Shown here: piece by piece, positions 13,700-17,683 of the stretch
Layout: every line of letters begins with the position of its first letter
Position numbering within the stretch: the first letter of the stretch is position 1
Source of the DNA: an uncultured Sphingomonadales bacterium
Lineage (GTDB): Bacteria > Pseudomonadota > Alphaproteobacteria > Sphingomonadales > Sphingomonadaceae
Assembly (NCBI GenBank): GCA_937863505.1
Contig: CALMGC010000113.1
Coordinates: 18,046 to 52,039, forward strand
Direction: 5' to 3'
DNA length: 33,994 nt
The notes under the pieces: model-generated
What the model was told of the DNA's origin: nothing
Databases searched by the model: none
The model's input: only the letters and a program-made list of their open reading frames with translations
Made by a program: the position numbers and the translations under genes

Positions 13700-14431
13700 G
13701 TGATTGAGCGTCTGGTAACCATCATGGCCCGTCTCCGCGACCCGGAACACGGCTGCGACTGGGATGGCGCACAGACCTTTGCCACGATTGCGCCTTACAC
13801 GATCGAGGAGGCGTACGAGGTCGCGGACGCGATCGAGCGTGGAGACTGGGCGGACCTCAAGGACGAACTCGGCGACCTGCTGCTTCAGGCCGTGTTTCAT
13901 AGCCGCATCGCCGAGGAAGCCGGGCTGTTCGCCCTACCGGACGTCGTAGCCGCGATCAGCGACAAGATGGAGCGCCGCCACCCGCACATCTTCGGCGACG
14001 GTCCTAACCCCGGCTGGGAAGCGCTGAAGGCGGCCGAGCGCGCCGCCAGGCCCGACGCGAGCGCGCTGGCGGGTGTCGCGACCGGCCTCCCCGCCCTGCT
14101 CCGCGCCGAGAAGTTGCAGAAGCGCGCCGCCCGCACCGGCTTCGACTGGCCCGACGCCAGCGGCCCGCGTGCGAAGATTGACGAGGAGCTGGCCGAGGTC
14201 GAAACCGCCGGGCCGGACGAGCTCGAAAGCGAGATCGGCGACCTGCTATTCTCGGTCGTCAACTGGGCGCGCCACCTCGGCGTCGACCCCGAAGCGGCAC
14301 TACGGTCGGCAAACGCAAAGTTCGAATGCCGCTTTCGCGCAATGGAAGGCGAGGCTGGCGAGGCGTTCGCCGCGCTCAGCCTGGAGGACAAGGAAGCGTT
14401 GTGGGCGGCGGTCAAGCGCTCCGCTGCATGA
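13700..14431 (+). CDS. mazG: Nucleoside triphosphate pyrophosphohydrolase MazG
   Basis: ARLRDPEHGCDWDGAQTFATIAPYTIEEAYEVADAIERGDWADLKDELGDLLLQAVFHSRIAEE and second MazG repeat ELAEVE...ESEIGDLLFSVVNWARHL; GTG start. Confidence 0.95.
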   Translation: MIERLVTIMARLRDPEHGCDWDGAQTFATIAPYTIEEAYEVADAIERGDWADLKDELGDLLLQAVFHSRIAEEAGLFALPDVVAAISDKMERRHPHIFGDGPNPGWEALKAAERAARPDASALAGVATGLPALLRAEKLQKRAARTGFDWPDASGPRAKIDEELAEVETAGPDELESEIGDLLFSVVNWARHLGVDPEAALRSANAKFECRFRAMEGEAGEAFAALSLEDKEALWAAVKRSAA

Positions 14432-15707
14432 AGCGCTCATAATCGCGCGGTGCGAGCCGGACGTCGTAGCCGACCCCGCCCTCGCCTGCGTCCTCCTGCC
14501 CCAGCACCTCGCCATGCGCGTGCAGCCAGGCCGCGCCCGCCCCGTCGGTCGCGGGTAGCGTGACATGGTAAAGAAGGTGTCCGCGCGTCAGCCGCTCGGC
14601 CATGTTCGCGAGCAGCACGTCGACCCCCTCCCCGCTCAGCGCAGAGATCGCCACCACATCTTCGCGCCGCGCCGCTTCGGCCAGCATCGCCTCGTGCGCT
14701 TCGGGGTCGAGCAGGTCGAGCTTGTTCCACGCCTCGATACGCGGTGTCGTCTCCGCCACGCCGATTTCGGTCAGCACCGCTTCCACATCGACGCGCTGCG
14801 CCTCGCTGTCCGGGTGCGCGATGTCGCGAACGTGGAGGAGCAGGTCGGCGGACACCACTTCCTCCAGCGTCGCCTTGAACGCGGCGACGAGCTGCGTCGG
14901 CAGTTCGGACACGAAACCGACCGTGTCCGACAGGATCGCCTTGTCGAGACCCGGCAGCGCGATCTGGCGCAACGTCGGGTCGAGCGTCGCGAACAGCAGG
15001 TTTTCCGCCATCACGCCCGCGCCGGTCAGCCGGTTGAACAGCGTCGACTTGCCCGCATTGGTATAGCCCACGAGCGCGATCACCGGCCACGGCGCACGCT
15101 GGCGCCGGTCGCGGTGGAGTCCACGGGTGCACGTGACCTGGTCGAGCTCGCGGCGCAGCTTCGCCATGCGGTCGCGGATCAGCCGCCGGTCCGCCTCGAT
15201 CTGGGTCTCGCCGGGGCCGCCGAGAAAGCCGAACCCGCCGCGCTGGCGCTCGAGATGCGTCCAGCTGCGCACCAGCCGTCCGGCCTGATAGTCAAGGTGC
15301 GCGAGCTCGACCTGCAACCGCCCTTCCGCCGTCGCCGCGCGCTCGCCGAAGATCTCGAGAATCAGCCCGGTCCGGTCGATCACCTTCGCCTTTAGCGCGG
15401 TCTCGAGATTGCGCTGCTGCACCGGGCTGAGGCTCGCGTCGACAACGACGAGCTGCGCGTCCTCCTGCGCGACCGCCGTCGCCAGCGCCTCGACCTGGCC
15501 CGAGCCCATCAGCGTCGCGGGGCGCGGCTGGCGCAACTTGACCGCGAGCTTGTCGGCGACGATCACGCCGATCGCCTCGGCCAAGCCTGCGGTCTCCGCC
15601 AGCCGCGCGTGGACATCGCGACTCGCCCCGCCCCGGTCGGGCAGCACCACCAGCGCGCGCGCGCCGCGCGCGAACTCGTCCCGGTCGCGGTCGAACCCGG
15701 CGCTCAA
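14412..15707 (-). CDS. hflX: GTPase HflX
   Basis: [74 protein letters not shown]; adjacent to hfq. Confidence 0.96.
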
Positions 15708-16195
15708 GCGTCGTCCGTTTCAGCTGGCTCTTCGGCAAGGTTAAGCGGTCGCGCGGGCTGTACGGTCGAGACCGCGTGCTTGTAGACTAGCTGCGACATG
15801 CCGTCGCGCTGAAGCAACATGCAGAACAGGTCAAATGCCGCGACATAGCCTTGCAGCATGACGCCGTTGACGAGGAACATGGTCACGCTGTCGTCCGAGC
15901 GGGTCACCGCGTTGAGGAAAATCTCCTGCAACCCCGGCTGCTTGCGCGCGCTCTCTCCCACCTGGTCGATGATGTCCGAAAAGTCGATCTGCCCGGCGGG
16001 CATGATGGTGGAGATGGCGTGCTTGTAGATCAGCTGCGATTGCCCGTCGCGGCGAAGCAGCACCGAGAAATTATCGAACCAGGTGACGATGCCCTGCAAC
16101 TTGACACCCTTGACCAGGAACATGGTCACCGGCGTCTTGCCGCGGCGAAGCGCGTTCAGGAACAGGTCCTGTAGCGAGGTCTGCTTGTCGGCCAT
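15704..16195 (-). CDS. hfq: Tandem two-domain Hfq RNA chaperone (163 aa)
   Basis: Two Hfq domains: [61 protein letters not shown] and [61 protein letters not shown]; adjacent to hflX. Confidence 0.93.
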
Positions 16196-16306
16196 CTATC
16201 AAGCCCCTTGTTGGCGGGACGTGCCCGCGGGCGGCGCCGTTACCCGGCGTCGGTTGCGGCCCAAGCCGGGCCGTGTCACTAACCTAAGGTTGCCCTGCGC
16301 TCGCGG

Positions 16307-17683
16307 CTAGTCGTCGCGCGTGTCCGAAATGCCCAGAAGCTTGAGCTTGCGGTGCAGCGCCGAGCGTTCCATGCCGATGAAACTCGCCGTGCGCGAGATA
16401 TTGCCGGAGAAACGCCTGATCTGCACGCGAAGATATTCGCGCTCGAACGACTCGCGTGCCTCGCGCAGCGGCGCGCCCATGATCGCGCCACCCCCCGAAC
16501 CGCCGGCGTCCGCCCCCTCGCCCAGCACTTCGGCGGGCAGCAGGTCGAGGTCGATCCGCGCGAGGCGATCCCCGGGCGCGAGGATGATGGTGCGCTCGAC
16601 GACGTTTCGCAGCTGACGGACATTGCCCGGCCAATCATAGCTTTGCAGCGCGACCATCGCTTCCGGCGCGATCTCGGGCGTGCGGACCCGTCGCTCGGTC
16701 GCATAATGCGCGATGAAGAACGCGACCATCGGTGGAATGTCCTCGCGCCGCTCCGCCAGCGCGGGAATTACGACCGGGACGACGTTGAGCCGATAGTATA
16801 GGTCCTCGCGGAAACGCCCCGCCGCGATCTCCGCGGCAAGGTCGCGCGACGTCGCCGACACGACGCGCACGTCCACCTTCACCACGCGCGTCCCGCCCAC
16901 GCGGGTAAAGCTTTGCTCGGTCAGCACGCGCATGATCCGCGCCTGCGTCGCCACCGGCATGTCGGCGATCTCGTCGAGGAACAGCGTGCCGCCATGCGCC
17001 TGCTCGAGCAGCCCGGGACGGACGAGGTCACCTCCCTGCTCCACCCCGAACAGCTCTTCCTCGACCCGCTCGGGCGTCATCCGCGCGGCGCTGACGACCG
17101 TGAACGGCCCGGTCACGCGCGGGCTCCAGCTGTGCAGCAGCCGCGCCGCGACCTCCTTGCCGACGCCCGCCGGGCCGGTGATCAGCACCCGGCTGCCGGT
17201 CGCGGCGACCCGCTTCAGCGTCGCGCGAACGGTGTTGATCGCCGCCGACGCGCCGGTCAGGTCGTTGTCGCGCCCCGCCGACAGCCGCAGCGAGGCGAGC
17301 TCCTGCCGCAGCCGCTCGGTCTCCGTCGCGCGCTCGACGAGGAGCAGCAGCCGCTCCGCCTCGAACGGCTTTTCGATGAAGTCGGACGCGCCGCGACGGA
17401 TCGCGGCAACGGCAGTGTCGAGATTGCCATGGCCGGAGATGACCAGCACCGGCAATGACGGATCACGCCGCTTGATCTCGTCGAGCAGGTCGAGCCCGTC
17501 GAGCCGCGAGCCCTGTAGCCAGACGTCGAGCAGCACCAGGCTGGGTCGCCGCGCGGCGATCGCCTCCAACGCCGCGTCGCTGTTGGCGGCGTCGCGAGTC
17601 TGATAGCCCTCGTCCTCCAGCACGCCGGCGACGAGTTCGCGGATGTCGAGTTCGTCATCGACGACGAGGATATCGAGCGGCAT
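16307..17683 (-). CDS. ntrX: Sigma-54-dependent response regulator NtrX
   Basis: Receiver domain (ILVVDDELDIRELVAGVLEDEGY), AAA+ domain (ITGPAGVGKEVAARLLHSWS, LFLDEIADMP), Fis-type C-terminus; paired with upstream ntrY. Confidence 0.93.
   Translation of the reverse strand: MPLDILVVDDELDIRELVAGVLEDEGYQTRDAANSDAALEAIAARRPSLVLLDVWLQGSRLDGLDLLDEIKRRDPSLPVLVISGHGNLDTAVAAIRRGASDFIEKPFEAERLLLLVERATETERLRQELASLRLSAGRDNDLTGASAAINTVRATLKRVAATGSRVLITGPAGVGKEVAARLLHSWSPRVTGPFTVVSAARMTPERVEEELFGVEQGGDLVRPGLLEQAHGGTLFLDEIADMPVATQARIMRVLTEQSFTRVGGTRVVKVDVRVVSATSRDLAAEIAAGRFREDLYYRLNVVPVVIPALAERREDIPPMVAFFIAHYATERRVRTPEIAPEAMVALQSYDWPGNVRQLRNVVERTIILAPGDRLARIDLDLLPAEVLGEGADAGGSGGGAIMGAPLREARESFEREYLRVQIRRFSGNISRTASFIGMERSALHRKLKLLGISDTRDD

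What the first reader, a model, noticed from the sequence alone, without database searches (positions are those of the whole stretch)
15704..16195. hfq encodes a fused tandem-domain Hfq in exact 81-residue register
The ORF contains two full Sm/Hfq domains (about residues 7-67 and 88-148) in one 163-aa chain. Equivalent residues (Q9/Q90, G30/G111, Y57K58H59/Y138K139H140) are all offset by 81 with no indels, suggesting an in-frame duplication-fusion. Canonical Hfq has a single Sm domain and forms a homohexamer. A fused protein would more naturally form a trimer of tandem domains, giving a ring with alternating, non-equivalent subunits. I believe such architectures are annotated in some Sphingomonadales, so the architecture itself may not be new, but its functional consequences look underexplored.
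Basis: partly seen in the sequence, partly recalled or inferred. Interest (0 to 1): 0.8.

Follow-up and report, generated by a model that had tools for sequence, protein, structure and literature searches.

The report
Two-in-one Hfq RNA-chaperone of sphingomonads
This Sphingomonas genome carries the standard sphingomonad form of the RNA-matchmaking protein Hfq, in which two copies of the ring-building domain are fused end to end; the fusion itself has been known since 2010, but across the whole family the two halves have become consistently different, as expected if three chains build a six-part ring with only three active, tail-guarded edges.

Summary
On the minus strand, 16195..15704 encodes a 163-aa protein with two complete Hfq domains in 81-residue register, and no other hfq is found in the genome. 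It is not an artefact: 302 of 316 sampled genomes of its GTDB family have it (47 of 55 genera). It is not new either: NCBIfam has a model for it (NF010691/PRK14091.1), and Yang et al. 2010 described it in Zymomonas and six other Sphingomonadales species, and already asked whether three chains make the ring.

What appears unreported: one duplication, never reversed in this sample; the eight single-domain genera branch outside the tandem clade. No tandem was found elsewhere in the Alphaproteobacteria or Pseudomonadota sampled. The halves have diverged in a fixed, complementary way. D1 keeps the basic RNA-annealing rim (+3 in 131/132), K31, and gains N28K. D2 has K31M, N41L, W38A/G, M63Q and a largely neutralised rim, but keeps proximal-face and ring-interface residues. 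The acidic autoinhibitory tail survives once per chain, after D2.

Most likely mechanism (inferred, not shown): three chains form an alternating D1-D2 pseudo-hexamer with three annealing rims on D1, each gated by the neighbouring D2 tail. Oligomeric state is untested.

The parts
15704..16195 (-). hfq, tandem-domain RNA chaperone Hfq, 163 aa (ATG at 16195, TGA at 15706-15704)
   Evidence: ORF; PF17209 two stretches; NF010691 and NF001602 above cut-off
15995..16177 (-). Hfq domain 1 (residues 7-67), canonical-like, full basic rim
   Evidence: Pfam residues 8-70; composition across 132 relatives
15935..15994 (-). linker (residues 68-87) that replaces the acidic tail of domain 1
   Evidence: linker [19 protein letters not shown], charge -2 here, family mean -0.7; short helix 73-79 in the model
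15752..15934 (-). Hfq domain 2 (residues 88-148), diverged rim and distal face, conserved proximal and interface residues
15707..15751 (-). acidic C-terminal tail (residues 149-163, ...[13 protein letters not shown]), the only acidic tip of the chain
   Evidence: charge -5; equivalent in position to the C. crescentus tip that docks on the rim
16136..16147 (-). domain 1 rim residues R17 R18 K20 (E. coli 16, 17, 19)
   Evidence: charge +3 in 131 of 132 tandem proteins
15893..15904 (-). domain 2 rim positions T98 R99 D101 (E. coli 16, 17, 19), basic triad lost
16100..16111 (-). domain 1 distal-face K29 and K32 (E. coli N28K and K31)
   Evidence: K28 fixed in 132/132 D1, N in all D2 and all 46 single-domain Hfqs
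15857..15868 (-). domain 2 distal-face N110 and M113 (E. coli N28 and K31M)
   Evidence: M31 in 131/132 D2
14412..15707 (-). hflX GTPase, immediately downstream; TTG start overlaps the hfq stop (conserved hfq-hflX pair)
   Evidence: Pfam HflX domains; hflX found on the same strand in 175 loci
16307..17683 (-). ntrX-type response regulator, upstream neighbour
   Evidence: Pfam; same strand in all 143 loci where found

Best explanation
This is the sole Hfq found in the genome, produced by one ancient in-frame duplication of hfq within the GTDB family that contains Sphingomonas. Shown: the architecture, its single origin, its family-wide fixation, and fixed differences between the halves. Inferred: three chains close into one six-domain ring with D1 and D2 alternating. 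Fusion turned D1's acidic autoinhibitory tail into a linker and left one acidic tail per chain, after D2. In an alternating ring each D2 tail docks on the basic rim of the neighbouring D1. The D2 rims, whose neighbours no longer carry a tail, have lost their basic character. The result would be a chaperone with six proximal U-binding sites, three strong annealing rims on D1 each gated by one tail, and a distal face whose lysines are concentrated on D1.
For: Two full domains in one chain. 302 of 316 family genomes have two matches, and one search shows these lying in one reading frame for the genus representatives; none has more than two, so no additional Hfq gene was seen. The HflX tree puts all 59 tandem rows on one side of a branch (SH-aLRT 87) with single-domain family members outside. 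In the domain tree all D1 form one group (98) and all D2 another (99), i.e. one duplication with no visible gene conversion. Fixed differences: N28K in D1 132/132; K31M and M63Q in D2 131/132; N41L in D2 123/132. Rim triad charge is +3 in 131/132 D1 and in all 46 single-domain proteins but most often 0 in D2 of genus representatives; tail mean -5.2 against linker -0.7. In the C. crescentus structure the acidic tip docks on R18/K19/K21 of the adjacent protomer (PMC6561178), the same three positions. Interface residues F11, L12, I24, L26, V54, I59, V62 (PMC11770335) are kept or conservatively replaced in both halves. dN/dS is about 0.02 in D1 and 0.11 in D2: both constrained. AlphaFold2 model: pLDDT 90, pTM 0.85 for the two-domain chain.
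Against: No oligomer was predicted or measured. pTM 0.85 does not prove ring-like side-by-side packing, because coordinates could not be inspected. D2 rim loss could be plain relaxation (three rims may suffice). In many Sphingomonas D2 domains R16 and K17 survive and only position 19 and its neighbours turn acidic, so loss of the rim is graded; the R16T of this protein is rare (2 of 132). The tail-docking argument is transferred from one crystal structure in which the tails also make lattice contacts.
Confidence: 0.65

Rival explanations
1. Six chains assemble into stacked homotypic rings (a D1 hexamer joined by linkers to a D2 hexamer) or another higher assembly; the halves then specialise as whole rings.
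For: Stacked or back-to-back Hfq rings occur in crystals (own knowledge); a linker of about 18 aa could span two rings; D1 and D2 differ strongly and consistently.
Against: A D2 tail in a D2-only ring would face D2 rims, so basic D2 rims should be kept; instead the D1 rims are kept and D2 rims neutralised. Interface residues allow heterotypic packing.
Confidence: 0.1
2. Three-chain ring, but the asymmetry has no functional meaning: with six sites per ring in excess, one domain simply relaxed after fusion and drifts (passenger half, constructive neutral evolution).
For: D2 evolves about four times faster than D1 in dN/dS; D2 identity among genera is 71% against 83% for D1.
Against: D2 dN/dS is still about 0.11; several D2 substitutions are fixed to one specific new residue across the tandem genera (M31, Q63, L41), which drift would not readily give; D2 proximal residues Q8, Y55, K56, H57 are retained.
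Confidence: 0.18
3. Open, mixed or variable assemblies: chains polymerise or exchange domains, so that no fixed closed trimer exists.
For: Nothing specific; linker length varies between lineages.
Against: Ring-closing interface residues are kept in both halves; linker and register are narrow (79-81 in 127 of 132).
Confidence: 0.05
4. Sequencing or assembly artefact that joined two genes.
For: The genome is a fragmented assembly of 324 contigs.
Against: Same architecture in hundreds of independent genomes including complete chromosomes.
Confidence: 0.01

Closest known systems
NCBIfam NF010691 / PRK14091.1 (two-domain 'RNA chaperone Hfq', 176 positions)
   Same: Same architecture, match over residues 1-161 above cut-off; in 385 class-wide and 299 phylum-wide genomes it exceeds the cut-off only in this family.
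   Different: Nothing material; the window protein is an ordinary member.
Zymomonas mobilis ZMO0347 Hfq (Yang et al. 2010, PMC2877685)
   Same: Two Sm-like domains; the authors noted six other Sphingomonadales species with it and proposed testing whether three chains form the ring.
   Different: No analysis in that paper, in the passages read, of residue-level specialisation of the two halves.
Caulobacter crescentus Hfq (PDB 6gwk, PMC6561178)
   Same: Closest solved sequence to domain 1 and best fold match; basic rim and short acidic tail.
   Different: Single domain, homohexamer, six equal rims and six tails.
Eukaryotic Sm/Lsm hetero-heptamers (own knowledge)
   Same: Rings built from diverged paralogous Sm folds with non-equivalent positions.
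   Different: Here the paralogues are fused in one chain and only two kinds exist; the heteromeric state arose independently.

Membership tests
Hfq (PF17209 / TIGR02383) | Hfq Sm domain above curated cut-off | tested here: met
   185 bits against 27 for PF17209, two stretches; TIGR02383 175.7 against 61.7
Hfq (PF17209 / TIGR02383) | Sm2 signature Y-K-H and proximal Q8 | tested here: met
   Y57K58H59 and Y138K139H140, Q9 and Q90 (conservation)
Hfq (PF17209 / TIGR02383) | Genomic context: hfq followed by hflX | tested here: met
   hflX directly downstream, conserved in 175 loci
Hfq (PF17209 / TIGR02383) | Forms a six-domain ring that binds U-rich and A-rich RNA | not testable with these tools
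   Monomer model only; RNA-binding residues conserved in D1, partly changed in D2
Canonical single-domain homohexameric Hfq | One Sm domain per chain | tested here: not met
   Two domains
NF010691 / PRK14091.1 tandem Hfq | Match across both domains above 270 bits | tested here: met
   282.1 bits, residues 1-161

The most novel reading that the evidence does not exclude
Sphingomonads run RNA-based regulation on a naturally three-fold-symmetric, functionally asymmetric Hfq ring. Fusion halved the number of autoinhibitory tails and, in step, of basic annealing rims, leaving three gated active rims on D1 and a D2 half specialised for ring-building and U-tail binding. This matching of tail number to rim number would be a natural test of the Hfq autoinhibition model, with sRNA and mRNA binding at non-equivalent positions of the ring.
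Probability: 0.45. Interest if true: 0.65.

Novelty: new member of a known kind. Interest (0 to 1): 0.42.

Why it matters
Hfq is the central sRNA matchmaker and is studied almost wholly as a symmetric homohexamer, in which every mutation hits all six sites at once. A natural ring with two fixed, different domain types would allow rim, distal and tail functions to be changed at three defined positions. It would also test whether tail number must match rim number. It bears on sRNA control in Zymomonas (ethanol and inhibitor tolerance) and in pollutant-degrading sphingomonads, where Hfq-dependent sRNA regulation is reported (SuhB in Sphingopyxis).

Tried and rejected
Artefact or fused neighbouring genes: rejected. 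Separate canonical hfq: none in the own genome and never more than two domain matches in relatives. Independent duplications or repeated loss of D2: rejected as unnecessary; single-domain family members lack the D1 mark K28 and branch outside the tandem clade. Tandem Hfq elsewhere in Alphaproteobacteria or Pseudomonadota: none in samples of 385 and 299 genomes. A solved tandem structure: none among sequence matches, where every chain listed is 63-114 aa, or the 50 best fold matches, all single-domain chains. Literature: the phrase 'two Hfq domains' has no hits, and later Zymomonas papers, in the passages read, do not treat the oligomeric state. The search covers only open-licence papers. Ring geometry could not be examined because model coordinates are not exposed.

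Full report
OBSERVATION. The finding is correct as a sequence statement. The minus-strand ORF 16195..15704 is a 163-aa Hfq with two complete domains. The named residue pairs are offset by 81, and the two domains are 63% identical in this protein. NCBIfam's two-domain model NF010691 (PRK14091.1) matches residues 1-161 above its cut-off. The gene lies between ntrX (upstream) and hflX (downstream), all on one strand. The hfq-hflX pair is kept in 175 related loci, so this is the orthologous hfq locus, not an extra copy.

IS IT REAL AND UNIQUE IN THE CELL? The own genome shows only these two domain matches, though it is 87.7% complete. In 401 genomes of the order, the own GTDB family f1 has 316: 302 with exactly two domain matches, 14 with one, none with zero or more than two (my count of the table). 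Where places were listed, the two matches sit side by side in one open frame. The 85 genomes of other families in the order have one match (78), none (6), or two on different contigs (1, a partial copy at a contig end). Tandem proteins thus occur in 47 of 55 genera of the family. A class-wide sample (385 genomes) and a phylum-wide sample (299) gave matches above the tandem cut-off only in f1. Named members include Sphingomonas, Hephaestia, Stakelama, Sphingobium and Sphingosinithalassobacter.

ORIGIN. A tree of the neighbouring HflX protein puts all 59 tandem rows on one side of a branch (SH-aLRT 87). The 13 single-domain family members included branch outside it, next to the other families. 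A tree of the domains alone gives one D1 group (98) and one D2 group (99). The single-domain members carry neither the D1 mark (K28) nor the D2 marks (M31, Q63). The simplest history is one duplication-fusion after the single-domain genera had split off, never reversed in this sample. Support on the HflX branch is moderate and rests on the quick tree method.

DIVISION BETWEEN THE HALVES. In E. coli numbering, over 132 tandem proteins and tested again on 52 family representatives, six positions are nearly fixed to different residues in the two halves. Position 28 is K in D1 and N in D2 and all single-domain proteins. The others, D1/D2, are: 31 K/M, 38 W/A, 41 N/L, 43 S/C and 63 M/Q. Both halves keep the proximal residues Q8, Y55, K56 and H57, the distal F25, G29 and Q52, and the interface residues. 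The rim triad (16, 17, 19) has charge +3 in 131/132 D1 and in all 46 single-domain proteins. In D2 the family-representative values range from -2 to +3, with 0 the most frequent. In the window protein the triad is R,R,K in D1 and T,R,D in D2. R16 and K31 are among the positions that E. coli workers mutate to disable the rim and distal faces, and R16A nearly abolishes recovered sRNA-mRNA pairs in vivo (PMC12262471). Both halves are under purifying selection among Sphingomonas-like sequences, D1 more strongly (dN/dS about 0.02 against 0.11).

TAIL AND RIM. The acidic tail exists once per chain, after D2 (mean charge -5.2). The corresponding stretch after D1 is a near-neutral linker of about 18 aa (mean -0.7). 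Acidic Hfq tails displace RNA from the basic rim (PMC5606850). In the C. crescentus structure the tip docks on R18, K19 and K21 of the adjacent protomer (PMC6561178), the same positions as the triad above. If D1 and D2 alternate in the ring, the retained partners are D2-tail and D1-rim, and the lost partners are D1-tail and D2-rim: both sides of one pair are kept and both sides of the other are gone. If instead D1 and D2 formed separate stacked rings, D2 tails would face D2 rims and those should stay basic, which is not seen. This is an inference from sequence, not a measurement. The causal order (fusion removes D1's tail first, then ungated D2 rims decay) is a guess.

STRUCTURE. An AlphaFold2 model of the single chain, from 61 family sequences, has mean pLDDT 90 and pTM 0.85. 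It shows two complete helix-plus-five-strand Hfq folds and a short linker helix at 73-79. The fold matches Hfq crystal structures, best C. crescentus 6gwk; the 50 best fold matches are all single-domain chains. Ring assembly was not modelled.

PRIOR KNOWLEDGE. Yang et al. 2010 described the two Sm-like domains in Z. mobilis Hfq, noted the same in six other Sphingomonadales species, and asked whether three proteins form the active ring. The architecture and the trimer idea are therefore not new. The family-wide fixed asymmetry, the single-origin mapping and the tail-rim matching were not found in the papers read here, but only open-licence papers were searchable.

VERDICT. A real, functional-looking, family-typical protein of a known kind; the added value is the asymmetry between the halves and a testable mechanism.

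Noticed in passing
L170, L171, L172 (genomes G096, G155, G157; one genus, g13): Tandem Hfq is strongly degenerate in part of one genus (D1 E about 1e-20 to 1e-25, D2 down to 1e-11): offset shortened to 72, the acidic tail lost or shortened, and H57 replaced by Q in one; another member of the same genus (G105, L164) keeps a normal tandem. Hfq function may be decaying there.
   Followed up: partly
window 15704-15707: The TTG start of hflX overlaps the TGA stop of hfq (TTGA), suggesting translational coupling.
   Followed up: no
L096 and L129: Records titled Microvirga sp. SRT01 and Bacillus sp. 2B10 carry Sphingomonas-type tandem hfq loci (about 81% identical to the window protein); most likely misnamed or contaminated assemblies.
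   Followed up: no
L177 (G001:C82:5520-5633) and L042: One genome of another family (f2) has a full single-domain hfq plus a second partial hfq at a contig end; possibly a second copy or contamination.
   Followed up: no
L175 (G344): Single-domain hfq whose frame runs on for about 150 residues after the acidic tail, and no hflX was detected in the 2 kb downstream; possible frameshift, rearrangement or assembly error.
   Followed up: no
window 16196-16306 and relatives: ntrX lies directly upstream of hfq in the family (tandem and single-domain members), whereas ntrX was not found within the short flanks fetched for most other families of the order.
   Followed up: partly
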